64,000 bases of DNA, from positions 248,001 through 312,000 of the forward strand of contig QKMZ01000001.1 in NCBI GenBank assembly GCA_003242885.1. The letters are read 5' to 3'. Position numbers and translations under genes: made by a program. Below are positions 6,927 through 46,459 of this stretch, in pieces; positions within the stretch are counted from its first letter, which is position 1; every line of letters begins with the position of its first letter. The notes under the pieces are model-generated. The model did not search any database. It had not been told where the DNA came from and worked only from the letters and a program-made list of their open reading frames with translations. Source of the stretch: Candidatus Melainabacteria bacterium. Lineage in GTDB: Bacteria; Cyanobacteriota; Vampirovibrionia; Obscuribacterales; Obscuribacteraceae.

Positions 6927-6958
6927 AGTCTGGGGCGAGATACAGCCGCATATTGAAA

Positions 6959-7651: not shown

Positions 7652-8869
7652 ATGACCGACAAGTATCTCCACATTTTTCCGCAAGAGGCGACTGTTCGAT
7701 CTGGACAGATCACCTATTCTGCGATTGTGGAAAAACCTGATGGGGCGAGGGAAGCGCTCTGGTATCGCTTGCCTGAATCATATCGAAATTCAATTGATGA
7801 CAGCGCCGATTATCTTGCAGTAGCGAACATTTTCAAGGCTATGGAAACCGGTGTGAAATGTCACATTCACGGCCGGGTGTCGAGCACTTTGTTGCGAAAC
7901 TTGTCAGAGTTTCAAAGCCTCTGGGCAACCTGGTTTCCGGAGCGCTACAAGTGCGTGGATATTATTGCCGATGTTGAAGATGGTCCCAAGAATTGCGGAA
8001 ATGGTTCGAGTCACTCAGGTGGCGAAGATGGCGGAGCAGCTGTTTTGAACGAGGCAATTGCTGCGTATACAGGCGGCATCGACAGTTCTTACACTGTTAT
8101 GCGGCACCATCGAAAACTATGCGGACGAATGACTCAGCCTTTGCGCGCTTGTCTTTTCGTTCATGGATTTGACATACCGTTGCCAGAGGAGGAAGCGTTT
8201 CGGCGTGTCGAAGTACGGCTGAGAAAAACTCTCTCCGGCACGAAGCTAGAATTAATTCCAATGGCAAGCAATCACAAAGAATTAAATCCACAATGGGATC
8301 ACACTCACATTGCCGGCGTTGCATCATGCTTGATGTTACTGTGCAAACGCTTCGATAGAGCGCTCATCGGAAGCACATATACGTATCACGAAGCATCCAT
8401 GAAATGGGGCAGCAACCCTATTTCCGACCGGCTACTCTCCAGCCACAGAATGAGTTTCTTTCACGATGGTGCAGAAACAGGGCGTGGTGGAAAAATGGTG
8501 GCGCTGTGCGATTGGCCCGAAGCGTATGACGATTTGCGCATATGCTGGAGCGCTCCCAACAAGGATGAAAACTGCGGTACATGCGGCAAGTGCGCGCTGA
8601 GTCTGCTCGGCTTTCGGTATAAGAAACTTCCCTTACCGAAGTCCTTTCCTGCTGGACTTTCAGAAGCAGCGATCGAAAGTCTGCTTTTTGATGAATCACA
8701 TTTGAGTGCCGCTGAAACACTGCTCAAATTCGCTTTGCGAGAACCCGACCAGGCACCGTGGGTAGCGGCACTGAAAAGATGTGTGGAAACAAATCGAGAA
8801 CGACTGGGTCTTGCGAAGAGCGGTAATGACTCTTTTTATAGCCGTGTGAAACGTAGACTTGGACTATAG
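7652..8869 (+). CDS. PP-loop ATPase (QueC/asparagine-synthase-like), left arm of RiPP locus
   Basis: A 405-residue protein with the ATP pyrophosphatase loop TGGIDSS (residues 140-146) and a C-terminal cysteine motif C-G-T-C-G-K-C (Cys 308, 311, 314) that should bind a metal, as the cysteine motif of QueC-type enzymes does. PP-loop enzymes adenylate a carboxylate, carbonyl or similar group before amide, nitrile or sulfur transfer. The substrate here is unknown. Its 3' end overlaps the convergent SagB-1 gene by 6 bp. A homologue occupies the mirror position at 19774-20949, arguing for a conserved link with the azole-RiPP genes. ATG 7652 was chosen by alignment with that homologue; an in-frame TTG at 7643 is possible. 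Confidence 0.8.
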   Translation: MTDKYLHIFPQEATVRSGQITYSAIVEKPDGAREALWYRLPESYRNSIDDSADYLAVANIFKAMETGVKCHIHGRVSSTLLRNLSEFQSLWATWFPERYKCVDIIADVEDGPKNCGNGSSHSGGEDGGAAVLNEAIAAYTGGIDSSYTVMRHHRKLCGRMTQPLRACLFVHGFDIPLPEEEAFRRVEVRLRKTLSGTKLELIPMASNHKELNPQWDHTHIAGVASCLMLLCKRFDRALIGSTYTYHEASMKWGSNPISDRLLSSHRMSFFHDGAETGRGGKMVALCDWPEAYDDLRICWSAPNKDENCGTCGKCALSLLGFRYKKLPLPKSFPAGLSEAAIESLLFDESHLSAAETLLKFALREPDQAPWVAALKRCVETNRERLGLAKSGNDSFYSRVKRRLGL

Positions 8870-9664
8870 ACCGACGCCCAGAGCCAGCAAGGCGCATTTG
8901 TCCAAGCCATCAAAACCTAGAGCTGAATTGATTTCAGAGTCTACGAATCCTGCGGTTGCACAGACGCAAAGTCCGAGCGCGTTTGCCGTTAAGTAGATGT
9001 TTTCTGAGACGTGACCCGCATCCATCAATCCGAGTCTGTATGCTCTAATTGTGTATTTTTCTGCCAGGCGAGCCATATCGCAAGACAGAATCAACACAGC
9101 GCCTGCGTCGCCAAATTCGACTTGAAGGATGCCGAATTCCTTGAGCCAGGTTGAGAAGTTGCCTTTCTTCTTTAACACGAGTTCGTGTTTTCGCCGATCA
9201 AATCTATAGATACCCGGCTCAACTCCTTCGACGTTTAACACAAACACGTCTATTTGGGTCGAAGCAAGTCCCCCTGCGGAGGGGAAGTTGAAGCCAGCTC
9301 CGTAGTTGGAGTCCATATTTTCGGAAGCTTCAGCGACTTTCGTCCGTGCGCCATTTGCAAGATACAGTATCTTTGCTAAATGCGACATTGGAAGAGCATT
9401 GCAGGAAAAACTCTTCTTACTTGTTCGATTCGTGATTGCTGTTTCTACGGGCATATCTGCATTAACAGCATTTACATCGAGTTTGATTCGCAACTCTTGC
9501 GGAGCCCCTTCGACGGTCTCTTCGGCAGTCTCGCTGCCTAGAGGTGAGGCACTTGGTTCATAGTTCATCTCATAAGATGCGCGGTTCCATTTCGCAGCTT
9601 TCTTGTTGCAGCTTTCAGTGTGGTAGACGTCGGCACTTGAGCCGGAATTGTGGATTAGTTTCAT
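8864..9664 (-). CDS. SagB-type azoline dehydrogenase (nitroreductase fold), left arm
   Basis: A 266-residue FMN-dependent oxidoreductase of the SagB/ThcOx class, expected to oxidise thiazolines/oxazolines to aromatic azoles. Visible marks are the segment FPSAGGLASTQIDVFVL, followed by GIYRFD (the G-x-Y-x-[FY]-D block after the PSAG motif), and the C-terminal block AYRLGLMDAGHVSENIYL. It begins 2 bp after the YcaO stop, so translation is coupled, and is the last gene of the left operon. The first 60 residues are polar and poorly conserved with the right-arm copy. Confidence 0.9.
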   Translation of the reverse strand: MKLIHNSGSSADVYHTESCNKKAAKWNRASYEMNYEPSASPLGSETAEETVEGAPQELRIKLDVNAVNADMPVETAITNRTSKKSFSCNALPMSHLAKILYLANGARTKVAEASENMDSNYGAGFNFPSAGGLASTQIDVFVLNVEGVEPGIYRFDRRKHELVLKKKGNFSTWLKEFGILQVEFGDAGAVLILSCDMARLAEKYTIRAYRLGLMDAGHVSENIYLTANALGLCVCATAGFVDSEINSALGFDGLDKCALLALGVGL

Positions 9665-9666
9665 AT

Positions 9667-10974
9667 CTATGGAAATGGATGTGCGTCGTGGTTGAAGTCC
9701 TTTGCAGAACGTTGCGATGGATTATCATTGCGTAAACGTGGGCAAGCAAGCCACCGTACTTTGTGAGCGACGATCAAAGGCACCATTTCCGGTACCGTCA
9801 CTTTGACGCAGACGCCAAGGTCGCTGGCTTCAGTCGAGGTGAGATCGCTCCACATCACGGTCAATCCAATTTCTTCCAGGCGTCTTGCCACGTTTGCCAA
9901 ATCCTCCATGGAATTCGGTGCCTGAAGCCAATCTCTGTGCTTATAGTCTTGCAGTGAAATTTCATTCTGATTGTCTTTTAGAAGGAAGTCCAGCGCTGGA
10001 CTATTGGGCCAATTCGCATAGAGATTGGCGTGGTCAGAAAATGATTTGACCCAATCGAACTCGGCAAACGACTGAACCACCGCGTCGCTTCCAAATTTAT
10101 GTTGCGCAAAACGTATTGCCATCGCTTCGTCGATAGCGCCGGTGCAGGCGACTTCAGCATCTTCGTGGGCAGATGCTCCGGCAACATAGTACGGGAAACG
10201 TTCACTTTCTAAAATGCAGAATACTGCCGGTATGGGAAATTCTCGCGTCATACTGAATAAGTTTACTTTTGTCCCACTCTTTTCTATGAGCGAGATGCGC
10301 TGCCAAAGCTCTCGGCCGACAGATTCCTTTTCTATGCGCAATTTGGGAATTGAAACTTTATTGAGCCAAAAGATCATCATCTGATCTCTTTCAGCGAGTT
10401 CAAGAAGTCCTGACCAGATTGCTTGCACTTGGTTGCTGTAGAAAGATAATCCGGCAGAAGTGGGAAGAGCAATCAGCGGCTCTGGAGCTTTCGCCCAGAA
10501 AGACAGGTGCACTGCACCTGCGGGAATCCAATATGTGCTTCCGGCATTGCCGTCTTTCAAGCGCTTAGCCGGCGTGTGCGTGAGAAGTGTGTCGTCTGTG
10601 TAGCCAATGCCGAGACCTTTAAAACTATCGCTGCATGATTCGTCTGGCAAGCAAAAGGGAAACAGCTTCAAAAGCTCGCTATCTGCGGCTCTTATCTGCC
10701 GCACCTCTGCTGAATGCAATGAGTTGTATCCGGTATAGCGCTCGACCGCTTCACCGAGTGCACGCAACATTGCTTCGTTGGGGTCAAGCGAACAGCCCAA
10801 TGCATTGGGGGTGTCGGTAGTAAAAAACTTTCCGATCGTTCGAACCAGATCGCCTTGGTACAGCCACCACGGCGGTTCTGGTCGCTCCAGTCTCATTCCC
10901 CGAAAGCGTGTAATCGGTCCAAACCGCGGGTTGACCCAATTCAAAACCGGCGCGAGCGGTCCTGGATTATGCAT
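9667..10974 (-). CDS. YcaO cyclodehydratase, left arm
   Basis: A 435-residue YcaO-domain protein. These ATP-dependent enzymes activate a peptide backbone amide by phosphorylation and cyclise Cys, Ser or Thr to azolines. Signature elements are CSLDPNEAMLRALGEAVERY (ATP/Mg site), SGLLELAERDQMMIFW, and a Pro-containing C-terminus ending HPFP, a shortened form of the PxPxP tail of azole-forming YcaO proteins. The ATG at 10974 overlaps the E1-like gene stop by 8 bp (ATGCATAA) with AAAGAGA upstream; the longer frame to 11085 would overlap that gene by over 100 bp. It works with the adjacent E1-like protein, which should deliver the precursor. Confidence 0.93.
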   Translation of the reverse strand: MHNPGPLAPVLNWVNPRFGPITRFRGMRLERPEPPWWLYQGDLVRTIGKFFTTDTPNALGCSLDPNEAMLRALGEAVERYTGYNSLHSAEVRQIRAADSELLKLFPFCLPDESCSDSFKGLGIGYTDDTLLTHTPAKRLKDGNAGSTYWIPAGAVHLSFWAKAPEPLIALPTSAGLSFYSNQVQAIWSGLLELAERDQMMIFWLNKVSIPKLRIEKESVGRELWQRISLIEKSGTKVNLFSMTREFPIPAVFCILESERFPYYVAGASAHEDAEVACTGAIDEAMAIRFAQHKFGSDAVVQSFAEFDWVKSFSDHANLYANWPNSPALDFLLKDNQNEISLQDYKHRDWLQAPNSMEDLANVARRLEEIGLTVMWSDLTSTEASDLGVCVKVTVPEMVPLIVAHKVRWLACPRLRNDNPSQRSAKDFNHDAHPFP

Positions 10975-12106
10975 ATGCAGAGTCTCTTTCAGGCTGCACT
11001 TCGCCGCGGACATCAACCGCCCCACTGAAACAGTCAGGGCAGCGGGCAACCTTTTTGACTTTGAATTGCTCGGTGTGTCCATCAAAAGTGTTGAAGATCA
11101 CCGTTCCTAGTGTGACAGGCAAACTGATCTTGGTTATTGCTCTAATAACTTCCATTGAGATTTGCGCACCTGCTGCGGTGGCAAAGGCGAGTGATTCTCC
11201 CTGCATTGGTTTTTCGCTGTTTTGCAATGATTCCATGTGCTGCGAGTAGAGGGATTCTTCGATTGGGTGATCGCTCGCACTGCGCGTGCGCAAGACGTAG
11301 CACGTGTAGCAAGCGGTATCGCGAGGAACAACGAGTGGACCGATTTCTAGTTCTACCGCACTTTCATTTGCGCGCAGCCAGTCAATTGGCGTTTCGAGCG
11401 AGATCTGGTTGATGCGGTTGAAAAAACTTTGAGGCGCGTTTCGCGTAGCTGTGACCAAAATATCTGCTGTTTGTACTTTCGTTTCTATTAGTTCGGCAAG
11501 CGTGTCGAGGGTATCTGCTGGGGTATAGCTAGTCTGCACGCCATTGTTGTGCGCATCTTCAACTAATTTTTTCAAGTCTGTGCTTTTGAGCCTGTCGATC
11601 ACTTCAATTGTATTGATGCCGGATCGATGCAGAATATCGAACGTGCAGCAGCCTAAAAGACCGTCGGCGACAAGGACTATCTTTGCTCCTGTCAGTTTGC
11701 CTTCCACTTCTTCGGGAGATGTATTGTTGCGCGTAAAACCAAGCTTTCTGCCCCAGAATAAGCGTTGCTTCGCGTCCAGGCTGTGATTGGTTTTCTCAAC
11801 CGATACCCCTTTCGTCTCGGCATCTACCAGATAACCCTTCCTGACGAGCAGCAATAGCAGCTCCTCAATCTCGGACTCATGCGTGCCGGCTGGGCGACTT
11901 TTGATGATGTTTTCCAGTGTTGTCTTTTGCTTAAGTTCGCCAATCAACCAGGGCATAAGGCTGACAGCAAGCCGCCCGCGCACTACAAGATTTGTCGCGC
12001 CACCGCGCACTTGCATTCCCAACCCGTCAGGCATTTCGAAGACGTCGAGGTCATCAACTAGGGTTGGATTCTTGGGAAAGCGTAGGTTCGGGTCTTTGAT
12101 ACTCAT
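10967..12106 (-). CDS. RRE-containing E1/ThiF-like cyclodehydratase partner (C protein), left arm
   Basis: A 379-residue protein of the ocin-ThiF-like/TOMM C-protein type. Residues 14-95 look like a winged-helix RiPP recognition element that would bind the precursor leader. Residues 140-330 form an E1-like domain (AKIVLVADGLLG at the nucleotide-site position), and two CxxC pairs (Cys 266/269, 356/359) make a zinc site. It is separate from YcaO, not fused. The precursors lie upstream on the same strand with a hairpin-bearing 112-bp spacer; YcaO overlaps its 3' end. The homologue at 16537 shares MPDGLGMQ and the CxxC spacing. Confidence 0.88.
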   Translation of the reverse strand: MSIKDPNLRFPKNPTLVDDLDVFEMPDGLGMQVRGGATNLVVRGRLAVSLMPWLIGELKQKTTLENIIKSRPAGTHESEIEELLLLLVRKGYLVDAETKGVSVEKTNHSLDAKQRLFWGRKLGFTRNNTSPEEVEGKLTGAKIVLVADGLLGCCTFDILHRSGINTIEVIDRLKSTDLKKLVEDAHNNGVQTSYTPADTLDTLAELIETKVQTADILVTATRNAPQSFFNRINQISLETPIDWLRANESAVELEIGPLVVPRDTACYTCYVLRTRSASDHPIEESLYSQHMESLQNSEKPMQGESLAFATAAGAQISMEVIRAITKISLPVTLGTVIFNTFDGHTEQFKVKKVARCPDCFSGAVDVRGEVQPERDSAYA

Positions 12107-12160
12107 TTTGATTCTCTTGTAGATTGCCGATCTTACAAGCTTTTATGGGGTGTAAGAAGA

Positions 12161-12194
12161 AAAAATGATAGCCAGTTTAGTGACTATCATTTTT
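12161..12194 (-). terminator. Perfect 11-bp hairpin between precursor and enzyme genes
   Basis: AAAAATGATAG (12161-12171) and CTATCATTTTT (12184-12194) are exact reverse complements with a 12-nt loop, and each strand reads stem then T-tract. It lies between the left precursors and the E1-like gene, so it may act as a leaky terminator that keeps precursor mRNA more abundant than enzyme mRNA. The termination role is inference. Confidence 0.6.
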
Positions 12195-12218
12195 GAATGA
12201 TTGAATTTGTCTCAGCTT

Positions 12219-12422
12219 TTAGAATTGAAAATCTGGTGTTGGTGGTTGAAATTGGCAATTGTCGCATCCACATGGACCCGAAGGCTTCGCCATGCGCTGA
12301 TTGCGCTGAGAAATGGTTTCAACGACAAGCATTTTGTCTAGTTGTTCATTGGAATTCAGGTAGTTCAAATAATCCGATTCGAACTCGCTTATCTGGCTTG
12401 AAGATGGATTTTTGGCTGACAT
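12219..12422 (-). CDS. RiPP precursor peptide A1
   Basis: A 67-residue peptide with a leader containing F14-x-x-D17-Y18-x-x-Y21, then PSGP and a short core C-G-C-D-N-C, ending F-Q-P-P-T-P-D-F-Q-F. AAAGGG lies upstream of ATG 12422; the longer frame to 12500 enters the neighbouring gene and is rejected. It is adjacent to A2 (same length, same layout) and upstream of E1-like, YcaO and SagB genes. The cysteines are the expected azole sites; the tail may be a follower. It is recognised by context and by shared motifs, not by similarity to a known bacteriocin. Confidence 0.85.
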   Translation of the reverse strand: MSAKNPSSSQISEFESDYLNYLNSNEQLDKMLVVETISQRNQRMAKPSGPCGCDNCQFQPPTPDFQF

Positions 12423-12445
12423 TTTAAGGCCCTTTCTGCGTGTTT

Positions 12446-12649
12446 TTAGAAACTGAAATTGGGTTGTGGCGGTTGAAATGTGCAGTTGTCGCATGCACAT
12501 GGACCCGACGGTTTGCTAAGAGTTTGTTTCTGCTGAGAGAGAGTCTGAGCAACAAGTGTCTCGGACGAGTCTTGATTGCAATCGAGGTAGGTTTGGTAAT
12601 CTTGCAGAAACTCCGAAGCTTCAACGATTGATTGAAAATTGTTGGACAC
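12446..12649 (-). CDS. RiPP precursor peptide A2 (GTG start)
   Basis: A paralogue of A1. Starting at GTG 12649, which has a strong AGAGGGAAG ribosome-binding site, it is 67 residues, exactly the length of A1, and F14, D17, Y18 and Y21 fall at identical positions. The longer frame to an ATG at 12700 lacks a good ribosome-binding site. The core is C-A-C-D-N-C after PSGP, with the tail T-F-Q-P-P-Q-P-N-F-S-F. It is the first gene of the left operon, 23 bp before A1. The A1/A2 pair suggests a tandem duplication giving two related products or a two-peptide product. Confidence 0.85.
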   Translation of the reverse strand: MSNNFQSIVEASEFLQDYQTYLDCNQDSSETLVAQTLSQQKQTLSKPSGPCACDNCTFQPPQPNFSF

Positions 12650-12671
12650 GGCTTCCCTCTCTAGTAGACTC

Positions 12672-12689
12672 GGCCACTTATCGCTGGCC
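12672..12689. promoter_or_regulatory. GGCCA-N8-TGGCC dyad in divergent promoter region
   Basis: A short perfect inverted repeat sits in the 77-bp space between the A2 start (minus strand) and the probable HTTM gene start (plus strand). It could be a shared operator; no clear -10/-35 pair was found beside it. Confidence 0.3.
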
Positions 12690-12726
12690 ACCGAAAGCAT
12701 GTTATCTTATTGACAATCCTGGTGGC

Positions 12727-14142
12727 GTGACGGTGGACGCGGATGTCGGCGACAATGAGAAAAGTTACGAACCGGACAGCATCACTGTGAGTTCAGATTC
12801 TACTCCGGAGGCTAGAGCCTTTACGGGACAAAAAACGTCGGACCGGGAATCAGTTTCAGCCTTTGATTCGCTCTTTTCTTTCTTTCTGCTTTCGGAAGAG
12901 GGTTTGGATGTCTTGAGCCGAATTATGGGCTTGCTTTCGATTTATACGTGTTTTGAAATCTTTAAAAGGCTTAATTGGTTAAGAGAAGAGTATCAAGTTG
13001 AATCTTGGTGGTGGCGGGACCAGTGTCTTTCCTTGCCCGATTCTGAGACCCTTGCCATTATCTTGCTATGCATCTGTGCCATCACCGGTCTTGCGATGGC
13101 CTTTGGTGTCAAAGGAAAGATCGCTCCAGCAATAGTGGTGCTTTGCGTTGGCTATCTAACCTGCCTGGATGTTAACATCGCTTTTCCTCATAGCTTTTTT
13201 CTGACGATTTGGGTTTGTGTGGCGTTGCTCTTCAGGCGCGGCGGAAAGTCCGTGACCCGCCGCCTTATTCAGCTCGCTTTGTTCGCGTGTTATTCGCTTT
13301 CAGCTCTGCAAAAGGTTTTTACCCCGCAGTTTATTCAGGGGCATTCACTTGCGGCATTGAAATACGGACCCAACCTGGATACCTGGGTCTTGAAGGCTGT
13401 CAGCCAGCTTCCCAGTTCGTCGGAATTGTGGCAGCTTTTGGCAATCTTCGTCGTTGTTGTCGAACTCGCTCTTGCGCTCGGCCTGTGGCATTCGAAGTCT
13501 CGCAAGTTTGCTCTCATTGGCATTATTGTGTTTCAGTCGCTGATTCTTCTGACTATGGATCCGCGCATTCTGCCTCTTCACTTAATGATCTGTCTGTGCT
13601 GTTTGTCCTTCGTTAACCCAATTGCAATCGAAAGGAGATTTGGGTCGCTGCCAAAGCGAGTTGAAGCGCCTGCCTGTTCTGCTCCTGCTTCGGGAGTGCC
13701 GGACTATACGCCACCAGGGGTGGTGTACAAGACACTTACGATTCTCGCCACTGCGATCCTTTTTGCGATCCCCTTAAGGATCTATTTCTATCCAAATGCA
13801 TTCGAGCAAATGTCAATGATGGACAGGCGTCCCTGGACATTTTGCATGTTTGTTTGTTTAGAAGGCCGCTACAAGACAAGCATTGTTTTGAAACGAAAAG
13901 ACGGCGATCTCGTCTGGGTCAAACCACGCGGAAGAATGGCTTACTTGTCCAGTGATTCTGACTTGTTGGCGTTAGCGAAGTATTTGGAGAAAACTTACCC
14001 AGGAGTCTTGGAAATCAAAATCGAGTCGCAATATGACGTGAACATGACCAACACTGACCACAAGGTTTTAACGGCAAAGGCGGCCCAGAGCGGTAATTTT
14101 CTACATCACATAAGCTGGCGTCGCGAGCCAATTGGTAATTAG
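12727..14142 (+). CDS. HTTM/vitamin-K-dependent carboxylase-like membrane protein
   Basis: About 471 residues with many hydrophobic helices. The segment ACYSLSALQKVFTPQFIQG matches the Y-x-x-x-x-x-x-K-x-x-x-x-F/W-x-x-G feature of HTTM (horizontally transferred transmembrane) proteins, the fold shared with gamma-glutamyl carboxylase. A soluble C-terminal domain of about 110 residues follows. The open frame begins at 12556 but its first part is antisense to precursor A2; GTG 12727 is the first sensible start outside that gene, although it lacks a clear ribosome-binding site. It lies between the two RiPP arms, divergent from A2. It could be a membrane tailoring enzyme, an immunity protein or part of export. 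Confidence 0.68.
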   Translation: MTVDADVGDNEKSYEPDSITVSSDSTPEARAFTGQKTSDRESVSAFDSLFSFFLLSEEGLDVLSRIMGLLSIYTCFEIFKRLNWLREEYQVESWWWRDQCLSLPDSETLAIILLCICAITGLAMAFGVKGKIAPAIVVLCVGYLTCLDVNIAFPHSFFLTIWVCVALLFRRGGKSVTRRLIQLALFACYSLSALQKVFTPQFIQGHSLAALKYGPNLDTWVLKAVSQLPSSSELWQLLAIFVVVVELALALGLWHSKSRKFALIGIIVFQSLILLTMDPRILPLHLMICLCCLSFVNPIAIERRFGSLPKRVEAPACSAPASGVPDYTPPGVVYKTLTILATAILFAIPLRIYFYPNAFEQMSMMDRRPWTFCMFVCLEGRYKTSIVLKRKDGDLVWVKPRGRMAYLSSDSDLLALAKYLEKTYPGVLEIKIESQYDVNMTNTDHKVLTAKAAQSGNFLHHISWRREPIGN

Positions 14143-15074
14143 CTTTTCAAGCCAACCCTTTTAAGGGTGACGTACGAGAACTGTTTTATCAGTTGAGGCA
14201 AACTTCCAAGAATTTCTTCTGTTTTTTGAGCCTGTTTTTCCAGGTGTTCGTATTCACGCAGTAAGTCGTGAAACTCTTTGTGCAAGCGTTGATACTTCTG
14301 GTACTGACTTTCTGGTGCTTCGCGTAGTGCCAATTGATGATCAAACTCTTTGATTGATTTCTCTAGCATTCTAGGTACATGCTTTTTCGTGGTATCAAGA
14401 TGTCTGAGCAGAACATCATAAAATGCGGCGGTAAGCGCCGTGAACTGCCTGCACCAGGAGTCTGGATGGCGTCTGTAATGATAGAGAGGTTCGGGCAAGT
14501 GAGCGAATTTTGCTCCCGTTTCTAGAAGAGACATCCAGAAATCTGTATCGGTAATCGCTTTGATGTTCTTGTATCCTCCCACTTGATCAAAGAGTTCTCT
14601 TTTGAAGATGAGGGTATTATGCGGGTAGTGTCCGCACACAATGTCTCCAAGGTCCGCACTGGGGGTATAGATGTAACTGTGCATGCCGAAGATTTGAACA
14701 TCAGTGAATACCGCGGATGCGTCCTCCTTCTTTAACATATTGAGTGTTGCTTCAATGTAGTTTGGCGAGAGCAAATCATCGCTATCTAGAGGAATGAAAA
14801 ATCCTCCTCTGCTGTGTGAAGCGGCTGTATTGCGACCCGCAGAACAGCCGCGATTTTCATCATGGCGAAAAATCTTAACTCTCGGATCGTTTATTTCTGC
14901 TAGTACCGTTGTAGCTGGAAGGCTGGGAGAACAATCATCAACAATCAACAATTCCCAGTTTTGGTACGTTTGTGCTCTTACGCTATCAACTGCCTCAAGG
15001 AGGAATTCTCCAAGTTCATAATACGGCATCAGAATGCTGACGAGTTCATTCGTAGTACTAGATGCGGTGCTCAA
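14139..15074 (-). CDS. Family 2 glycosyltransferase with C-terminal coiled coil
   Basis: A 311-residue GT-A enzyme: N-terminal SILMPYYELGEFLLEAVDSV, the VDDCSP loop and the metal-binding DSDD motif, followed by GGYKNIKAITDTDFW in the acceptor region. It should transfer a sugar from a nucleotide donor. The last 80 residues are charged and helical and end EILGSLPQLIKQFSYVTLKR, a tail shared with the next gene. It uses a TTG start at 15074 with AGGATT ahead. Its 3' end overlaps the convergent HTTM gene by 4 bp. It is a tandem paralogue of the gene at 15101 and lies between the two RiPP arms. Confidence 0.9.
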   Translation of the reverse strand: MSTASSTTNELVSILMPYYELGEFLLEAVDSVRAQTYQNWELLIVDDCSPSLPATTVLAEINDPRVKIFRHDENRGCSAGRNTAASHSRGGFFIPLDSDDLLSPNYIEATLNMLKKEDASAVFTDVQIFGMHSYIYTPSADLGDIVCGHYPHNTLIFKRELFDQVGGYKNIKAITDTDFWMSLLETGAKFAHLPEPLYHYRRHPDSWCRQFTALTAAFYDVLLRHLDTTKKHVPRMLEKSIKEFDHQLALREAPESQYQKYQRLHKEFHDLLREYEHLEKQAQKTEEILGSLPQLIKQFSYVTLKRVGLKS

Positions 15075-15100
15075 GCCAATCCTGCCTTTGAATCTATTTA

Positions 15101-16051
15101 CTATCGTCCTAATTTTTTCAGCGCAATGAAAGCCATTTGTCGCGCAATCAGAGGTAGGCTTCCCAACATCTTTTCATTGCGTTGTACGCGCTGTGCAAGA
15201 CTTTCGTGTCTCGCTTTGAGGATTTCGAACTCCTTTTTAAGGTAAGCATACTCCGACTCTTCTTTAGCGTATTGCTCCGCACTTGATAAGAACTGCTGGG
15301 AATCTTGCTTTGTGTTGACACTGTATGAAAGCGCATGGTCCCGCCACTGCTCCAATACCCCCTGCAAATGCTCTGCAACGGATTGGTGGTGCATTAGTAA
15401 TGTGCGATAAAAATTAGGTAAAACGTACGGCTGCTGAGTGCTCATCAGCCCTTTTTCGTGGCTGCGGTAAAGGTAAATTGGTTCAGGCACAAATGCGAAT
15501 TTTGTTCCGGCTTCAATTATTCTGATCCAGAATTCGGTATCTTCGACTAACTTCAGATCTTTGTAACCACCTACAGAATCAAAAACTTCACGCTTTACTA
15601 AAAGAGTGTTGCATGGGAAATGGCCAGAGAATATTTTGCCTAAATCGGTACTCGGAATGTAGATGCGATTTGAATTTCCAAAATACTGTACTTGAGTGTA
15701 CGCGGCCCCGGTATCAGCTTCCTTTGATGCCCTCAAAGTTTTTTCAACGTAATCAGGCGCAATCTTGTCGTCTGAATCCAGTGGGATGAGATAGTCACCG
15801 CTGCTTTTTGACGCAGCAGTATTGCGTGCGGCCGCTGTACCTAAGTTGGAATCATGGCGGTAAACATGGATTCTCTCGTCACGTTCGTCCCGCAGTAAAT
15901 CTCTCGCCGGGTTTTCGGGTGAACAATCATCAACGATGATGAGTTCCCAGTTTGCATGAGTTTGTTTCTTAACAGAATCGACCGCCTCGAGAAGATAATC
16001 CCCTAGGCGGTAGTACGGCATTATGATACTGACGAGCGGTTCGTTTCCCAT
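15101..16051 (-). CDS. Family 2 glycosyltransferase, tandem paralogue
   Basis: A 316-residue GT-A enzyme closely related to the downstream gene: SIIMPYYRLGDYLLEAVDSV, VDDCSP, DSDD and GGYKDLKLVEDTEFW are all present, and the helical tail ends MLGSLPLIARQMAFIALKKLG. ATG 16051 is preferred to a GTG one codon upstream because GAAG precedes it closely. The gene is divergent from precursor B, with 159 bp between the two starts. A role in decorating the RiPP or a surface glycan is plausible from position only. Confidence 0.9.
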   Translation of the reverse strand: MGNEPLVSIIMPYYRLGDYLLEAVDSVKKQTHANWELIIVDDCSPENPARDLLRDERDERIHVYRHDSNLGTAAARNTAASKSSGDYLIPLDSDDKIAPDYVEKTLRASKEADTGAAYTQVQYFGNSNRIYIPSTDLGKIFSGHFPCNTLLVKREVFDSVGGYKDLKLVEDTEFWIRIIEAGTKFAFVPEPIYLYRSHEKGLMSTQQPYVLPNFYRTLLMHHQSVAEHLQGVLEQWRDHALSYSVNTKQDSQQFLSSAEQYAKEESEYAYLKKEFEILKARHESLAQRVQRNEKMLGSLPLIARQMAFIALKKLGR

Positions 16052-16210
16052 CACTTCAAACTGAAACCCGATACGTCACTAATTTAGTTAATAGAAGTTG
16101 TCCGGATAGTTAGTTGTATGTAATTTTGGTGTTCTAAATGTACACGAGGGCCCATAAATTCAGGCCAAGTTGTTAGTATTGCCCTGTGGGCATCTAAGTT
16201 GGAGAACAGT

Positions 16211-16465
16211 ATGAGTTTTCGAAAGGCATTCTCGGCAGATTATCTCGGATATGTGAAATCAAAAACACATAGCCGTTCAGAGAGCCTGCAGTCCTTTGAG
16301 TTCGGAAATTCCGGCAATGCTTTACAAGGGCTTGCTTCGGCTGGACCGTGTTCTTGTGCGTGCACCTGCCCTTGCGCCTGCGCCAGCAGCTGTTCTTGCG
16401 CTTGCACTTGCCCTTGTGCTTGCGGCAGCTCTTGCTTCATGCCACCTGCGCCCACTCAGTCGTAA
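16211..16465 (+). CDS. RiPP precursor peptide B, with duplicated CxCxC core
   Basis: An 84-residue peptide starting at ATG 16211 behind TTGGAGA; a TTG at 16199 lies inside that ribosome-binding site. The leader carries F7-x-x-D10-Y11-x-x-Y14, the motif also seen in A1 and A2. After ASAGP the core begins at residue 47 with C-S-C-A-C-T-C-P-C-A-C-A-S-S, repeated with one change (A to G), then a final Cys, giving 13 cysteines mostly alternating with small residues. The tail is F-M-P-P-A-P-T-Q-S. Full cyclisation would give runs of alternating thiazoles. It is upstream of its own E1-like, YcaO and SagB genes. Low complexity alone would be suspicious, but context and the shared leader make it convincing. 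Confidence 0.9.
   Translation: MSFRKAFSADYLGYVKSKTHSRSESLQSFEFGNSGNALQGLASAGPCSCACTCPCACASSCSCACTCPCACGSSCFMPPAPTQS
16349..16432 (+). repeat. 42-bp in-frame tandem repeat encoding the precursor core
   Basis: Two 42-bp units (16349-16390 and 16391-16432) encode the same 14 residues apart from one Ala/Gly change, followed by one more Cys codon. The units differ at several third positions, so the duplication is not fresh and the peptide sequence appears to be under selection. Confidence 0.9.
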
Positions 16466-16467
16466 GG

Positions 16468-16515
16468 CTCTTTTCACTTTAAGAGATAGCGCCGAGCATC
16501 GTAGAATGTCGCTCG
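16468..16515 (+). promoter_or_regulatory. Two small hairpins between precursor B and its E1-like gene
   Basis: CTCTT/AAGAG (16468-16472, 16481-16485) and CGAGC/GCTCG (16493-16497, 16511-16515) lie in the 71-bp spacer after the precursor stop. They sit where the strong hairpin lies in the left arm, so partial termination or mRNA processing is possible. The stems are short. Confidence 0.35.
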
Positions 16516-16536
16516 TTGCCTGATTGAGCATTTTTC

Positions 16537-17679
16537 ATGCCAGATAAGCATTATGAAGTGGCGCTTTCCTTCTTGCAGGAAGGCGGGACAAACTTCCCAA
16601 GGTTTCCGAAATTGGTGGAAGACCTAGTTGTCTTTGACATGCCGGATGGTCTTGGAATGCAGTTTCGCGGGTTGTCATGTCCGGTGGTCTTACGTGGAGC
16701 GCTTGCAGAGACGCTTCTTCCTAAATTGTTGCCGTTGCTCGATGGTGAGTGCGAAGTAGCAGAACTTTTTGAAAGGTTTTCCAAGGAGGCAAGCCCTGGT
16801 GAGATTGCTGCTCTTCTAAAGAACCTCTTTACAAGGGGTGCCATTGCAGATCCTGATAAGGCAGGCGCAGTCGGCAATATTGTCGATAGAAAGCATCAGC
16901 TGTTTTTCGGGCGTCGTCTTGGGGTTACCAGAAACAACAGGTGTTCTTCTGAGGTTGTTGAAAAGCTTGCTCGTGCGCGCGTCGTCGTGATTGCGGATGG
17001 TCTGCTCGGCGCAGCAGTAGTCGACCTTCTAAATAGATCTGGATTTGAAAACCTAATTGTCGCGGCCCTAAAAACGCAAGATGCATCGGAAGAATTATTT
17101 TCCGGTTTTCCTTCCGAAATAAACATTTTGCATTTTGAAGGTACTGATACGGCTGTAAAAACGTTCCTTCAACAAGAGGCAAATTCAGCGGATTTGGTTG
17201 TCGCAGCTCTGAGGACTGTGCCGCAGTCCGTGCACTTGGCTATTAATGAAACATGCATACAATCAGGGGCTCAATGGTTGCGGACATGCGACAACGGCAG
17301 CAATGTTGAAGTTGGACCGTATGTGAACCCTTATGATTCGGCATGCTTTGAATGCATGCTCGTTCGCCAGATTAGTGTGAGTGATTACGCTGTTGAAGAG
17401 GAGCTCTATCAGGAATTCCTAAAGGGCCAAGTATCCGTGTCTGGTCTTTTGGGAGAATCGTTAGGGCTGGCAACTCAGGCAGCATCATATATTGCGCAAG
17501 AAGCAGTGCGCATCGTCACTGCGATTGAAAAACCGCAATTGGATGGGACCGTTCTGACATTTCATTCGGACGGAACAATCGATCGCAATGGATTCAATCG
17601 CGTTCCTAGATGTGAGGTTTGCGCCAGAGGCGGTGCCATTTCCGTGCCGGAGAGAGACCATGCCAGTAAAGTCTCGTGA
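16537..17679 (+). CDS. RRE-containing E1/ThiF-like cyclodehydratase partner, right arm
   Basis: A 380-residue homologue of the left-arm protein. It has an N-terminal winged-helix-like recognition element (residues 24-105, with MPDGLGMQFRG), an E1-like domain beginning ARVVVIADGLLGAAVVDLL, and two CxxC pairs (Cys 270/273, 359/362) for zinc. It should bind the precursor B leader and stimulate YcaO. The YcaO start overlaps its 3' end by 20 bp. The two copies differ throughout, so the arms diverged long ago or were acquired separately. Confidence 0.88.
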   Translation: MPDKHYEVALSFLQEGGTNFPRFPKLVEDLVVFDMPDGLGMQFRGLSCPVVLRGALAETLLPKLLPLLDGECEVAELFERFSKEASPGEIAALLKNLFTRGAIADPDKAGAVGNIVDRKHQLFFGRRLGVTRNNRCSSEVVEKLARARVVVIADGLLGAAVVDLLNRSGFENLIVAALKTQDASEELFSGFPSEINILHFEGTDTAVKTFLQQEANSADLVVAALRTVPQSVHLAINETCIQSGAQWLRTCDNGSNVEVGPYVNPYDSACFECMLVRQISVSDYAVEEELYQEFLKGQVSVSGLLGESLGLATQAASYIAQEAVRIVTAIEKPQLDGTVLTFHSDGTIDRNGFNRVPRCEVCARGGAISVPERDHASKVS

Positions 17680-18979
17680 GAAATTAGGAAAACTCGCGCC
17701 TGTTTTGGAGCTAATTGATGAAAGATTTGGCCCTGTCAGAGACCTGATTGGCATAAAGGCGAAGGGTAATCAACCGCCGTTTTGGATTTATCACGCACAA
17801 CTTTCGCGACCACTGGGCTCTTATTTTGTGGAATACGACTGTGATGCTTGGGGTTCGTCAATCGACAAAGACGAAGCGCTATTTAAATGTTTGGGCGAAA
17901 CGCTTGAGCGTTATTGCATGTATAACACCTTCGCCACCGCTGAGTTTGCGCAGCTGCCGGCATCAAATTGCAAGTTGCTCGACGTTTTGCCACGCTGTGG
18001 CCCGCAAGAACCTTGTTCTGATACTTTCAAGGGAGTTTCGCCTGACTGGAATTTGACTATGGCGAGAATGACAGCCGTAGCCACTGATGAGTTACATTGG
18101 ATGCCTGCCGGCTTTGTCGATTTCACATATAACACTAGCGCCGATGAACCCAGAGTGACTTTGTCTCACTCTTCCGGTTCTGCATTTCACGAAAGCATCT
18201 ATCGTGCGATATGGGCAGGTCTTTGCGAAGTTGCGGAACGTGATGCCTTTTCGCTCTTCTGGTTGAATCAACTTCCTGCCAAAGAAATTGTTTTTGACAA
18301 GTTGGATCTCTTGAATGGAGGTGAAGACCTGCAAGCGCTTTCCACAAGAATTGAGTTGATCAAGGCTGCTGGACTGAGTATCCGTAGTTTTGACATTACG
18401 ACTGATTTTAACGTGCCGACTGTTTTTTCTGTTGTGCAAGGCGAAGAATTTCCGCTGGCGACTTTTGGTGCTGCATGTACTGGCGATCCTGTAAGAGCGA
18501 TTGTGAAATCAATAGACGAGGTCTTCCTCGTCCGCTTCGCGCAATTGAGTGGAAAGGAAACTGCGCATGTTCATTCATATACTGACTTCGATTGGGTCTC
18601 GTCCTTGCGCGATCATTCGGATCTTTATGCTCTGTGGAAAACCCCACCTGCTTTTGATTTTTTCATGAAAAATGCAGGGACAGTTTCACTTCAGGAGTTC
18701 AGGAGCAGAAGTTGGTGGCAAGAGCCGCAAAATTATTCGCAATTACAGGATGTTTGCCGCAAGCTGAAAGAGGAGCTGGGGATGACTGTCTTATACCTGG
18801 ATTGCACGTTAGATGATGTATCGCGTTTTGGCGCTGGTGTAAAAGTCGTAGTACCTGAAATGCTGCCCATCTCTGTACCCACTTCGATTAAATGGCTTGG
18901 CTGCCCGCGTCTTGCAAAACATGCGGAAAAGCATTCATTGCAATTTGCAAGCAACCCATTCCCCCATCCATTTCCATAG
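17660..18979 (+). CDS. YcaO cyclodehydratase, right arm
   Basis: A 439-residue YcaO protein with SSIDKDEALFKCLGETLERY, AGLCEVAERDAFSLFW and a full Pro-rich C-terminus NPFPHPFP, the PxPxP tail typical of azole-forming YcaO enzymes. It should use ATP to cyclise the many cysteines of precursor B. The start at ATG 17660 has GGAGAGAGACC immediately upstream; the longer frame to 17588 is not needed. It is followed 9 bp later by SagB. Confidence 0.95.
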   Translation: MPVKSREKLGKLAPVLELIDERFGPVRDLIGIKAKGNQPPFWIYHAQLSRPLGSYFVEYDCDAWGSSIDKDEALFKCLGETLERYCMYNTFATAEFAQLPASNCKLLDVLPRCGPQEPCSDTFKGVSPDWNLTMARMTAVATDELHWMPAGFVDFTYNTSADEPRVTLSHSSGSAFHESIYRAIWAGLCEVAERDAFSLFWLNQLPAKEIVFDKLDLLNGGEDLQALSTRIELIKAAGLSIRSFDITTDFNVPTVFSVVQGEEFPLATFGAACTGDPVRAIVKSIDEVFLVRFAQLSGKETAHVHSYTDFDWVSSLRDHSDLYALWKTPPAFDFFMKNAGTVSLQEFRSRSWWQEPQNYSQLQDVCRKLKEELGMTVLYLDCTLDDVSRFGAGVKVVVPEMLPISVPTSIKWLGCPRLAKHAEKHSLQFASNPFPHPFP

Positions 18980-18988
18980 GTCGCTCAG

Positions 18989-19777
18989 TTGAAAGCCTCG
19001 CATAAAAAATTGGCTGCCGAACTTGCTTGTGACTACCATGTCGCAAGCAACAATTCACCATGGCTTTTGAAGTTGCCTGTCATTAAGCAGGTCAATTTTA
19101 GTGAGCATGTGCAAGAGTTGATGGAAGAAGGCCCCAGACAAATCGACTCTGATACTGATACTCAAGCTTTCCAGTGCACTGGCAAGGCTTCTGACATGAC
19201 GCTTATTGACGCGCTTGCCCGCAGAAAGAGTTCGCGGGAATTTTCTAAATCTGCTTTGGATTTGCAGAAGTTCGGTCAATTACTCGGGCTTTCCAATGGA
19301 CTACGCAACAAAGTAGGCAATGCCAATGACAGTGGTAGAAACGCTCCCAGTGCCGGTAGTCTTTGCTCTTGTGAGATGTATGTGCTGGCATTGAACGTCG
19401 CTGATCTTGAAAAAGGCATTTACCATTATGATGTGGGCGCTCACGGATTAAAGCAGCTCAAGCTCGGCGACTTCAAAGAATGGTCGAAGCGTATGCTACT
19501 TCTGCAGTCGGAATTGTGCGACTCAGCGGCGTTTATTTTTCTTGCCAGCAATCAAGGACGCTTGCGCAGCAAGTATGGTCCACGCGCATACAGACTGGGT
19601 TTACTAGATGCCGGGCATGTCTCTGAAAACATCTATCTCGTGTCTGCTGCGCTCAATCTTGCAGTGACAGCTACGGGCGGCTTTATTGACGACGAACTAA
19701 ATAACGCACTTGGCTTAGACGGCGTAGATGATTGCGTCGTACTAGTTTTAGCTGTTGGCGAACCTGCCGGAGCCTAA
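18989..19777 (+). CDS. SagB-type azoline dehydrogenase, right arm
   Basis: A 262-residue nitroreductase-fold protein with the PSAGSLCSCEMYVLAL block, GIYHYD, and PRAYRLGLLDAGHVSENIYL, matching the left-arm copy in order. It should oxidise azolines to azoles with FMN. The start is a TTG 9 bp after the YcaO stop; no ATG is suitably placed. Its stop overlaps the convergent PP-loop gene by 4 bp, the same junction type as in the left arm. Confidence 0.9.
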   Translation: MKASHKKLAAELACDYHVASNNSPWLLKLPVIKQVNFSEHVQELMEEGPRQIDSDTDTQAFQCTGKASDMTLIDALARRKSSREFSKSALDLQKFGQLLGLSNGLRNKVGNANDSGRNAPSAGSLCSCEMYVLALNVADLEKGIYHYDVGAHGLKQLKLGDFKEWSKRMLLLQSELCDSAAFIFLASNQGRLRSKYGPRAYRLGLLDAGHVSENIYLVSAALNLAVTATGGFIDDELNNALGLDGVDDCVVLVLAVGEPAGA

Positions 19778-20949
19778 TAGGGCGGTTTTCCAAATAACGC
19801 TTTTATTCTCTCGCTGGTTTGTTTGAGCTCGTGATGAATTGTTTTCTTTGGTTTCAAACGCTGGCGATTGACTGCTATCAAATTGGTTAGTTGATGGCGG
19901 AAAGGCAGTCTGTTGCCTATCTTGAGAAGAGCCTCAAGCGCCTCGAGGTGTACTTCATCGAGTTCTTCAATGTCTTCAAAAACCTCTTCTGAGAGCGCTT
20001 GCGGAAATGAGCAAGGCGTCGGCAGTTGCAACATGCTGATGAGCATTAGCGTGACCAAACACTTTCCGCACCGACCGCAATTTTGGTCTTTCTTCGGATT
20101 CGAGTAACAAACGCGAATTCTCTCGTACGCTGTCTGCCACTCGCGCAAATGATAAAGCTTAGAGCCTCGATTCCAAATGGCACCATCGTGGAATATGGAA
20201 AAATTTCTGCTGGACATCAGATGATCGCTCGTCGGATTACTGCCCCAGAGCGGCGCTAGATCGTTGTAGCAGTATGTTCCGGGAATGATTCCTTCGGAAA
20301 ATGTGCGCTTGAAAAATGTCAAACAAGATGCAATTCCGGCTGCGTGCGTTTCATTCCAGTCAGGAAATAGAAGGCGGTGATTGGATTGAATTGGGTACAG
20401 TGGCACTCCGACTGACTTGAGCGTATCTTGATTCGTCCTGAATGCTCGTTTGTAAGCCTCTTCATCTTCCAGAGGAATGTCAAAGCCATGCACAAAGAGC
20501 GCCGCTCCCAAATTGCGCTTTAGCCGACCGCATATACCCGACGCGTGTCGATAAATTGTAAAACTGCTGTCCAGTCCGCCGGAGAAAGCGCATATAGACC
20601 GATCAAGGTCTGGAAAAACATCTGTCTCTGCTTCAGTTTCGGCAGTAATTTCTACGCGATTGTATTTACCAGGCAGGTTGGCGTACCAATAAGCCTGGAA
20701 TTCCATCAAGTTGCGAATGAGAAATGGCGAGACTGTGCCATGAACATGCACATTGGCTTTAGTAGTCATCGCGGCGAATATGGCCGCAATGAGGTAAGGC
20801 TCGGCACTCCCCGTCAGATTCTGAGCAAGCTCTTCCGGCACCCTGTACCAGAGCTGCTTGCGTTCTGCGTTTGGAAATTCGATTTCCGCCGAAAGCTCGA
20901 CTTTTCCGTCAACCAGCTTAGGCTCTAATGGGTAAATATTGCTGCGCAT
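19774..20949 (-). CDS. PP-loop ATPase (QueC/asparagine-synthase-like), right arm
   Basis: A 391-residue homologue of the protein at 7652. It has SGGLDSS (about residues 123-129), VHGFDIPLEDEEAYKR matching VHGFDIPLPEEEAFRR of the left copy, WGSNP-x-SD, and the cysteine motif C-G-R-C-G-K-C. The predicted activity is ATP-dependent adenylation of an unknown group. ATG 20949 aligns with the left copy; upstream ATGs at 20979 and 20985 are also in frame, and none has a strong ribosome-binding site. Its position, convergent on SagB-2, mirrors the left arm. Confidence 0.8.
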   Translation of the reverse strand: MRSNIYPLEPKLVDGKVELSAEIEFPNAERKQLWYRVPEELAQNLTGSAEPYLIAAIFAAMTTKANVHVHGTVSPFLIRNLMEFQAYWYANLPGKYNRVEITAETEAETDVFPDLDRSICAFSGGLDSSFTIYRHASGICGRLKRNLGAALFVHGFDIPLEDEEAYKRAFRTNQDTLKSVGVPLYPIQSNHRLLFPDWNETHAAGIASCLTFFKRTFSEGIIPGTYCYNDLAPLWGSNPTSDHLMSSRNFSIFHDGAIWNRGSKLYHLREWQTAYERIRVCYSNPKKDQNCGRCGKCLVTLMLISMLQLPTPCSFPQALSEEVFEDIEELDEVHLEALEALLKIGNRLPFRHQLTNLIAVNRQRLKPKKTIHHELKQTSERIKALFGKPPY

Positions 20950-21050
20950 ACTGCATTTGTATAACAATGCCGAATGCATAATCATGAGATGGTTGTCATG
21001 TTGCTTTCGGCTGAGCTAGTAGACTGATAGAAAAACGCAGTCCTCTGACC

Positions 21051-22064
21051 ATGCAAAAACCGCCGCTGATCTCGATTGTCATCACTTACTACAGCTATGC
21101 CGACTATCTGTTGGAAGCCGTGGCGAGCATAAACGCGCAGACATATCGCAATTTCGAAGTAATCATCGTCGATGATGGCTCGCCCGAAAAGCATGTGTAT
21201 GAGTTGGATTTTGGTCCTGTTGAGTTTCCTCTCAAGATTGTTACGCACGAGTCAAATAAGGGACTGCCAGAAGCCAGAAACACTGGTGTTAAACAGGCAT
21301 CAGGTGAGTTTCTCGTAATAATGGACTCCGACGATCTCATTGAGCCAACGTTCTTGCAGGATACGCTGGCTGTCCTCCAAGACTCCGAGAATGACGGCGT
21401 TTACACGCATATGCAGTTGTTCGGTGCGCGCGACTATCTATGGAAAGAAGAGGTTTCTCTCATTTCTCTTCTTGCTGGCGAACCAGGCCCCGTGACATTC
21501 TTGATGAAGCGAAGGGTTTTTGAAGAAGTGGGCGGCTATAACCAGCATCTGTCTCTCAACAGCGATCACGAATTTTGGGTAGCGGCTTTGGGTTGTGGCA
21601 TGAAGTTTGCCCGCCTTGAGAAAACTCTGTTCAAGTACCGTAAACACGAACAAAGTATGTCCAGCGTCAATCGAGACCAATGGTGGCAATCAATTCCTGT
21701 TCTCTTAGAACACCACAAGGAGTTGTACGACCGCCATTATCCAGAGATCCTGGCTTTCAAAGAAAGACAGTTCAGAAAGCTCGAGGATCAATACGATACG
21801 CTATATCAAGAGTGGCTCGAAGTTGATGCTGAATCCAGGCGTGTTCATCAAATCCACAAGGAAGCGCTGAAGCGCATGTCCTTTGCCGATCAAGTGTTTC
21901 AGAACCCAGTTTTGCGAGCACTATTTTTTCTTTTCAGGCGCAGTCCAAACAGCACCATCGATTCCGCCGTTGACTCCGCGCTCACTGTCTCGGCGAAAAC
22001 GGCGCCTGACAGCAATGCCAAAGTCACAGCTATAGGCGACACTCGCAGAGTTGCGTCGCGTTAG
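21051..22064 (+). CDS. Family 2 glycosyltransferase
   Basis: A 337-residue GT-A enzyme, third family-2 transferase in the region: SIVITYYSYADYLLEAVASI, VDDGSP, MDSDDL and a GGYNQHLSLNSDHEFW acceptor block. It shares the YLLEAV-S-x-x-x-QT feature of the other two but has a different C-terminal tail rich in Ser and Ala. It is divergent from PP-loop-2 with about 100 bp between starts. Substrate unknown. Confidence 0.9.
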   Translation: MQKPPLISIVITYYSYADYLLEAVASINAQTYRNFEVIIVDDGSPEKHVYELDFGPVEFPLKIVTHESNKGLPEARNTGVKQASGEFLVIMDSDDLIEPTFLQDTLAVLQDSENDGVYTHMQLFGARDYLWKEEVSLISLLAGEPGPVTFLMKRRVFEEVGGYNQHLSLNSDHEFWVAALGCGMKFARLEKTLFKYRKHEQSMSSVNRDQWWQSIPVLLEHHKELYDRHYPEILAFKERQFRKLEDQYDTLYQEWLEVDAESRRVHQIHKEALKRMSFADQVFQNPVLRALFFLFRRSPNSTIDSAVDSALTVSAKTAPDSNAKVTAIGDTRRVASR

Positions 22065-46457: not shown

Positions 46458-46459
46458 AA

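What the first reader, a model, noticed from the sequence alone, without database searches (positions are those of the whole stretch)
7652..20949. Mirror-image double azole-RiPP locus
Two arms carry the same five-part set in inverted order: PP-loop ATPase, SagB, YcaO, E1/ThiF-like with RRE, precursor(s), then precursor, E1/ThiF-like, YcaO, SagB, PP-loop ATPase. Even the junctions match: convergent PP-loop/SagB stop overlaps (6 bp and 4 bp) and E1/YcaO overlaps. The paralogues are clearly diverged, so this is an old inverted duplication or two related cassettes kept together. I know of no described azole-RiPP system with this palindromic layout. Enzyme families are established knowledge; the combined pathway is inference.
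Basis: partly seen in the sequence, partly recalled or inferred. Interest (0 to 1): 0.95.

Follow-up and report, generated by a model that had tools for sequence, protein, structure and literature searches.

The report
Mirrored twin azole-peptide factory
A relative of cyanobacteria carries two diverged, mirror-image gene sets that likely each turn a cysteine-rich peptide into an azole-containing product, and each set ends in a gene for an enzyme of predicted QueC-like fold that would add a further, still unknown, change to the peptide.

The parts
7652..8869 (+). PP_L, PP-loop ATPase of the same family as PP_R, left arm (405 aa; a TTG start at 7643 is also open)
   Evidence: 42% identical to PP_R, sharing the GG-D loop and C-x9-C-x2-C-x2-C motif; low pN/pS
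8864..9664 (-). SagB_L, predicted azoline dehydrogenase
   Evidence: TIGR03605 105.8 bits, cut-off 78.4; SagB profile matches 3eo7, CyaGox, McbC
9667..11085 (-). YcaO_L, predicted cyclodehydratase (true start probably near 10974)
   Evidence: PF02624 145.4 bits; YcaO profile matches MusD, TruD, LynD, McbD
10967..12106 (-). E1_L, ThiF-like partner
   Evidence: TIGR03882 39.3 bits, cut-off 36.9; the R homologue was folded
12219..12425 (-). precursor L2, core GPCGCDNCQFQPPTPDFQF
   Evidence: orthologues in L010 and L011; shared motif
12446..12700 (-). precursor L1, core GPCACDNCTFQPPQPNFSF
   Evidence: the G002 orthologue lacks the GPC core
12556..14142 (+). predicted membrane protein of unknown family between the arms (true start probably downstream of the overlap with precursor L1)
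   Evidence: only MauE at E 0.041; conserved in L010 and L011; remnant in G006
14139..15074 (-). GT_a, family 2 glycosyltransferase
   Evidence: PF00535 101.5 bits
15101..16054 (-). GT_b, family 2 glycosyltransferase
16211..16465 (+). precursor R, core with 13 Cys (GPCSCACTCPCACASSCSCACTCPCACGSSCFMPPAPTQS)
   Evidence: orthologues with 12-15 Cys in G002, G005, G006
16537..17679 (+). E1_R, ThiF-like partner with predicted RRE
   Evidence: TIGR03882 41.2 bits; AF2 pLDDT 85.8, N-terminal three strands then three helices; fold matches MccB, LynD, PaaA, TruD
17588..18979 (+). YcaO_R, predicted cyclodehydratase ending PHPFP (true start probably near 17660)
   Evidence: PF02624 153.9 bits
18989..19777 (+). 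SagB_R, predicted azoline dehydrogenase
   Evidence: TIGR03605 130.3 bits
19774..20985 (-). PP_R, PP-loop ATPase of predicted QueC/QatC-like fold, right arm
21051..22064 (+). GT_c, family 2 glycosyltransferase beside PP_R (flank; stays with PP_R in G003 without azole genes)
22114..23229 (-). polysaccharide pyruvyl transferase (flank)
   Evidence: PF04230 99.2 bits; homologues neighbour PP-loop genes in other phyla too

Best explanation
The locus holds two homologous sets of azole-RiPP gene families in mirror order, and in each the E1/RRE protein likely binds the precursor leader, the YcaO likely cyclises core cysteines (and perhaps serines or threonines) to azolines, SagB likely oxidises them to azoles, and the PP-loop protein of predicted QueC/QatC-like fold would spend ATP on a further change to the peptide. 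Shown: gene families, order, intact frames, the palindrome in three genomes, low pN/pS in both arms, shared precursor motifs. Predicted: the PP-loop fold and the RRE. Inferred from the families: leader binding, cyclodehydration, oxidation. Least certain: the PP-loop step. My committed guess is that it adenylates a carboxylate and forms an amide-type bond on the peptide, most likely at or near the conserved GPC start of the core after leader removal, because GPC is kept in left, right and YcaO-less precursors that share this enzyme family, and because Cap9 is described, and QatC proposed, to act on an N-terminal glycine. The SFGEGG precursors of the radical-SAM loci lack GPC, so the site cannot be GPC itself there. 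The left arm would make a short three-cysteine peptide and the right arm a poly-cysteine one: two products from one locus. The central glycosyltransferases may decorate the peptides.
For: Families and order. Conserved palindrome: L010 (G002) and L011 (G005) show the same order of both arms and centre; the eight arm enzymes are 63-91% identical to the window's, the three central proteins 54-62%. Selection: 28 of 28 gene comparisons (14 genes including two precursors, two relatives) have pN/pS 0.08-0.38 with pS 0.57-0.85; no formal test. Precursors: F-x3-Y-x2-Y plus [AS]GPC hits 11 of 5690 short stop-to-stop frames in the window and 21 related loci, all 11 the listed precursors (the motif was drawn from these peptides, so this shows rarity only). 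PP-loop. Recurrence with peptide loci: of 17 close PP-loop genes in this family, 8 sit in azole arms, 5 beside a radical-SAM gene, 2 beside a GT2 and a GPC precursor, 1 without a RiPP gene, 1 cut by a contig end.
Against: No product, mass or activity is known. The PP-loop family is far wider than RiPPs: in 55 of 65 loci across bacteria neither the YcaO nor the radical-SAM references hit the flanking frames of 100 aa or more, and in Psychrobacter and Symploca it lies among glycosyltransferases and pyruvyl transferases. In G003 the right PP-loop gene stays with GT_c and the pyruvyl transferase without azole genes. Foldseek's TM-scores to QatC are modest (0.46 and 0.44), and PADLOC's QatC model does not hit the window's proteins. 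Contig lengths 86320 and 19721 each carry a right-type YcaO and E1, but no PP-loop protein of that length is among the 120 listed of 142. No exporter or peptidase was recognised among the genes at 7.6-21 kb.
Confidence: 0.72

Rival explanations
1. The PP-loop genes belong to a glycan module (GT2 plus pyruvyl transferase) and not to peptide maturation; the azole gene sets settled beside them.
For: G003 keeps PP_R with GT_c and the pyruvyl transferase but no azole gene. In Psychrobacter and Symploca relatives lie near GT2 and pyruvyl-transferase genes. A neighbour in Symploca is an Asn-synthase-like protein.
Against: PP_L keeps the same tight convergent junction with SagB_L, and no glycosyltransferase was recognised next to its outer side in the window, L010 or L011. 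Five PP-loop genes sit beside radical-SAM genes with no GT2 reference hit next to them. Metagenomic right-type PP-loop and E1 or YcaO share longest-contig lengths (24883, 52296, 6814, 288962), a hint of linkage.
Confidence: 0.25
2. The two arms are the product of one old inverted duplication of the whole gene set inside this lineage.
For: Same gene content, order and junction types; homologous precursors with leader, GPC and PP-rich tail; both YcaOs in one 30-row clade with 99/85 support; L and R as one clade not rejected (p 0.152 and 0.128; groups named after seeing the trees).
Against: The best YcaO tree joins L with P0148, P0137, P0141, P0142 and P0151 (94/81), and the best PP-loop tree joins L with the radical-SAM-linked PP-loops (95/48). 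E1 is only 34% identical between arms.
Confidence: 0.4
3. Two related cassettes with separate histories were brought together, the left one being inserted beside the right one.
For: L joins other lineages in the best trees; G006 has only the right arm in the same chromosomal place.
Against: G006 keeps a remnant of the central membrane gene (residues 110-171, 35%, E 1.7e-8), which points to loss of the left part there. G006-type right-arm proteins and left-type E1 share longest-contig lengths 109251 and 16220.
Confidence: 0.4
4. The PP-loop protein conjugates a 7-deazaguanine to the N-terminal glycine of the core, as Cap9 does to its CD-NTase.
For: QueC-family fold with a QatC-like extension; zinc-type Cys4 motif; GPC would leave a terminal glycine after leader removal.
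Against: No PTPS/QueD match and only three partial QueC matches (21-25 bits around the 22-bit cut-off, 61-116 of 210 positions, in frames of 356-605 aa) in a genome of 93% estimated completeness, so no evident supply of the base; salvage is not excluded. QatC's own reaction is unresolved (PMC13279940, parts 1-2 of 6 read).
Confidence: 0.05

Closest known systems
Azole RiPPs of the LAP/TOMM kind with separate E1, YcaO and SagB (streptolysin S and microcin B17 type, recalled; Hymenobacter plasmid NZ_CP141187 locus)
   Same: E1 then YcaO then SagB gene order, matching families and folds; leader-bearing Cys-rich precursors here
   Different: Here the set is doubled in mirror order, with a PP-loop gene at each outer end and no recognised ABC exporter beside it; the Hymenobacter locus has an ABC exporter and no PP-loop gene in 16.4 kb
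QatC of qatABCD and Cap9 of type IV CBASS (PMC13279940; PMC13329287)
   Same: QueC-fold PP-loop core with an N-terminal extension; best fold match over residues 11-372
   Different: 14% identity in the structural alignment, no PADLOC QatC hit; zinc-type motif C-x9-C-x2-C-x2-C rather than the C(x)19CGxC form given for QatC in PMC13329287; no qat search was run
Nitrilobacillin AS-like nitrile synthetase PesC (PMC13060819)
   Same: An ATP-dependent enzyme that modifies a RiPP carboxylate
   Different: PesC is asparagine-synthetase-like; the present protein is QueC/QatC-like and sits in an azole locus
FxsB-type cyclophane radical-SAM RiPP loci
   Same: Relatives of the PP-loop gene sit beside such a maturase (the one scanned, in L041: 350.9 bits to TIGR04269, cut-off 370)
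   Different: No YcaO reference hit, different leader and SFGEGG cores

Membership tests
LAP/TOMM azole RiPP | SagD-type YcaO cyclodehydratase | tested here: met
   PF02624 145.4 and 153.9 bits, cut-off 25.7; TIGR03604 is the best NCBIfam match but below its 219.25 cut-off
LAP/TOMM azole RiPP | E1/ThiF-like partner with leader-binding RRE | tested here: met
   TIGR03882 over cut-off in both arms; predicted strand-helix N-terminus and MccB/LynD/TruD fold for E1_R only; leader binding itself untested
LAP/TOMM azole RiPP | SagB-type dehydrogenase | tested here: met
   TIGR03605 over cut-off in both arms
LAP/TOMM azole RiPP | short precursor with leader and Cys/Ser/Thr core next to the enzymes | tested here: met
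LAP/TOMM azole RiPP | azol(in)e heterocycles in the product | not testable with these tools
   No product data
QueC superfamily (PF06508) | SGGxDS loop and Cys4 zinc motif | tested here: met
   G136, G137, D139 in 65 of 65 rows, S135 in 52, S140 in 58; each of the four Cys in 64 of 65
QueC superfamily (PF06508) | Pfam profile over its cut-off | tested here: not met
   PP_R 16.2 bits, E 0.0079, cut-off 22; PP_L no hit
QatC | QueC core with N- and C-terminal extensions | tested here: met
QatC | match to the QatC profile | tested here: not met
   No hit for either window protein in PADLOC; one distant relative (P0046) at E 0.056
QatC | QatB partner with MGTS N-terminus | not tested
   No qatA, qatB or qatD search was run
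Cap9-type deazaguanylation | own supply of 7-carboxy-7-deazaguanine | tested here: not met
   0 PTPS/QueD matches; three partial QueC-family matches around the cut-off; QueE was not searched; genome 93% complete

The most novel reading that the evidence does not exclude
A branch of QatC-like QueC-fold enzymes is a general RiPP tailoring tool: in one bacterial family it serves azole peptides, radical-SAM cyclophane peptides and GPC/GT2 peptides, installing one and the same ATP-driven peptide modification that anti-phage QatC would have borrowed or shared.
Probability: 0.3. Interest if true: 0.88.

Novelty: new variant of a known kind. Interest (0 to 1): 0.62.

Why it matters
QatC's reaction is called unresolved in the paper read here (PMC13279940). 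Relatives with a QatC-like predicted fold beside short, genetically encoded peptides in three settings would give a simple way to learn what this fold does to a peptide: the likely substrate is written next to the enzyme. The mirrored pair is also a natural experiment in how one locus keeps a three-cysteine and a poly-cysteine precursor with a common leader.

Tried and rejected
Recent inverted duplication: rejected, since the arms share only 34-42% protein identity and no long DNA inverted repeat was found. Chance adjacency in one genome: rejected by the two other palindromes. PP_R as canonical QueC: PF06508 is below cut-off, and hhalign of the family profile with E. coli QueC aligned only the zinc-motif region (25 columns, probability 25.9, E 7.3e-4). 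Whether QueC's substrate-binding Tyr/Asp pair is kept: inconclusive; Tyr240 is kept in 61 of 65 rows and position 242 is not conserved, but no residue-level structural alignment was available. Search of solved structures by sequence for the PP-loop profile gave a pentatricopeptide repeat protein, taken as chance, and weak GMP synthetases. The AU test printed is not usable, because close metagenomic orthologues were left outside the group; one search replaces it. Rows dropped before trees: 79 of 96 YcaO hits kept (350-520 aa), 91 of P0001-P0094 kept for the PP-loop tree (of 120 listed, 142 found), 39 of 41 E1 hits. E1 tree: 7 outgroup rows and a midpoint root, so it cannot decide sisterhood. 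Promoter scan: 13 found against 13.9 expected, no use; terminators 24 against 16.2. Literature: no paper seen on a mirrored double azole cassette or on QatC/QueC-fold enzymes in azole RiPPs; searches were made, open-access texts only. Papers: PMC13060819 outline, abstract, introduction and part 1 of 2 of the discussion; PMC13329287 outline, abstract and three result sections; PMC13279940 parts 1-2 of 6; others only as search listings.
Full report
What is there. The stretch 7652-20985 has two arms of the same gene set in mirror order. Reading outward from the centre, each arm has precursor(s), an E1/ThiF-like protein, a YcaO and a SagB dehydrogenase on one strand and, convergent to SagB, a PP-loop gene. 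The PP-loop/SagB stop codons overlap by 6 bp on the left and 4 bp on the right. Between the arms lie a predicted membrane protein without a family (only MauE at E 0.041) and two family-2 glycosyltransferases. HMM searches name the azole enzymes in both arms; YcaO falls below the NCBIfam SagD cut-off but far above the Pfam one. Solved relatives by profile include MusD, TruD, LynD and McbD for YcaO, 3eo7, CyaGox and McbC for SagB, MccB, TruD and LynD for E1 (by fold). The AlphaFold model of E1_R (pLDDT 85.8) begins with three strands and three helices, the arrangement expected of an RRE (recalled).

Host. The window lies in a 6.73 Mb assembly in 17 contigs, 93% complete. Five genus mates correspond, by contig coordinates, to MAGs deposited as Candidatus Melainabacteria, Candidatus Obscuribacterales or Cyanobacteria bacterium. 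The genome has two YcaO matches, both here. In the sampled class 5 of 382 genomes have this YcaO, all in this genus; in the sampled phylum 16 of 386 match, own genome included, the other 15 far weaker (best E 2.2e-36) and all in one other family.

Conservation. L010 (G002) and L011 (G005) keep the full palindrome with the same centre; arm enzymes are 63-91% and central proteins 54-62% identical to the window's. The G002 copy of precursor L1 has lost its GPC core. L012 (G006) has only the right arm, at the same place (ffh, HD, membrane gene and glucan phosphorylase on the left, GT_c and pyruvyl transferase on the right); a remnant of residues 110-171 of the central membrane protein survives, which suggests loss of the left part. 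L013 (G001) is a 4.4 kb contig with a diverged right-type arm. G003 has no azole gene but keeps PP_R, read from two contig ends that overlap by 127 identical bases; an assembly branch at that point is not excluded. G004 and G007 gave neither YcaO nor PP-loop matches. So of 8 genus genomes, 3 have two arms, 1 one arm, 1 an arm on a fragment, 1 the PP-loop only, 2 nothing; the seven relatives are 64-90% complete. Metagenomic proteins of left and right type share longest-contig lengths (55482, 84429, 109251, 16220, 16915, 36752), which hints at further two-arm loci; equal length is a hint, not proof of one contig.

Age and selection. For 14 genes against two relatives, all 28 comparisons show pN/pS of 0.08-0.38 with synonymous differences of 0.57-0.85 per site, near or at saturation; simple counting, no formal test. 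Precursor R (0.30, 0.25) and L2 (0.20, 0.18) are included. Both arms therefore look long kept by selection.

Origin of the two arms. Between arms identity is 42% (PP-loop), 41% (SagB), 38% (YcaO), 34% (E1). In the YcaO tree of 87 rows, L and R lie in one 30-row clade (99/85); the R side of 21 rows (100/99) includes P0131-P0136 and P0138; L joins P0130 closely and then P0148, P0137, P0141, P0142 and P0151 (94/81). In the PP-loop tree of 104 rows, L lies nearest the radical-SAM-linked PP-loops, weakly (95/48). Forcing L plus R together is not rejected (p 0.128 and 0.152; groups named after seeing the trees). An old duplication and two related cassettes brought together are both open.

Precursors. 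Right-arm cores have 12-15 cysteines, mostly in CxC runs, and a CF-x-PP-x-P-like tail; left-arm cores have three cysteines (GPCxCDxCxFQPPxPxxxF). All 11 peptides compared share a leader F-x3-Y-x2-Y and [AS]GPC. This pattern hits 11 of 5690 short frames in the window and 21 related loci, all 11 being these precursors (pattern and set are not independent). Two of the 11 lie in loci where no YcaO reference hit was found (L044, L045); these have a PP-loop gene and a GT2 related to GT_a/GT_b (36-38%). Precursor, PP-loop and GT2 may thus be an older core to which azole enzymes were added (inference).

What it probably does. Azole formation follows from the families. For the PP-loop step the literature offers N-terminal glycine modification by Cap9 and, proposed, by QatC (PMC13279940, PMC13329287), and C-terminal nitrile formation by an AS-like enzyme in another RiPP (PMC13060819). 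The genome lacks a QueD match and has only three partial QueC matches around the cut-off, so a deazaguanine donor is not evident. I commit to ATP-dependent acylation or amidation of the peptide, near GPC in these precursors, at modest confidence, with the glycan module as the main rival, since G003 keeps PP_R with GT_c and the pyruvyl transferase alone.

Verdict. A real, conserved arrangement of known enzyme families, not found described in the searches listed, with an unexpected QueC-fold partner: a new variant of a known kind.

Noticed in passing
L043:1536-2027 (G006:C78): A 163-aa precursor beside an FxsB-like radical-SAM gene and a PP-loop gene carries a tandem array of eight SFGEGG-type motifs, i.e. 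a likely multi-core peptide.
   Followed up: partly
L044:6938-7219 and L045:4970-5224: Loci without a YcaO reference hit, with a PP-loop gene, a GT2 and a precursor with three (L044) or one (L045) GPC motifs and the same leader as the azole precursors.
   Followed up: partly
window 12161-12194: A 14-pair terminator-like stem lies between precursor L2 and E1_L and could keep precursor transcripts above enzyme transcripts.
   Followed up: no
L010:5467-5637: The G002 orthologue of precursor L1 keeps leader and tail but has lost the GPC/Cys core.
   Followed up: no
window 5985-7650: A glucan phosphorylase gene flanks the left side of the locus in G003 and, by sequence, likely in G006, G002 and G005, but is not at this place in the window.
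   Followed up: no
window 45435-47506: An ABC ATPase and permease pair by eye, 24 kb from the arms; whether it exports the peptides is unknown.
   Followed up: no
G000:C13 (L048, L053), L049, L051, L052, L145: Remote PP-loop paralogues at 20-30% identity, some in tandem pairs, without YcaO or radical-SAM reference hits nearby; L145 has a weak SagB-like neighbour (23% over 142 aa).
   Followed up: partly
L076-L086, L088-L091, L110, L115 (Psychrobacter): The PP-loop family recurs in what looks like a polysaccharide locus, next to a GT2 and usually a pyruvyl transferase.
   Followed up: partly
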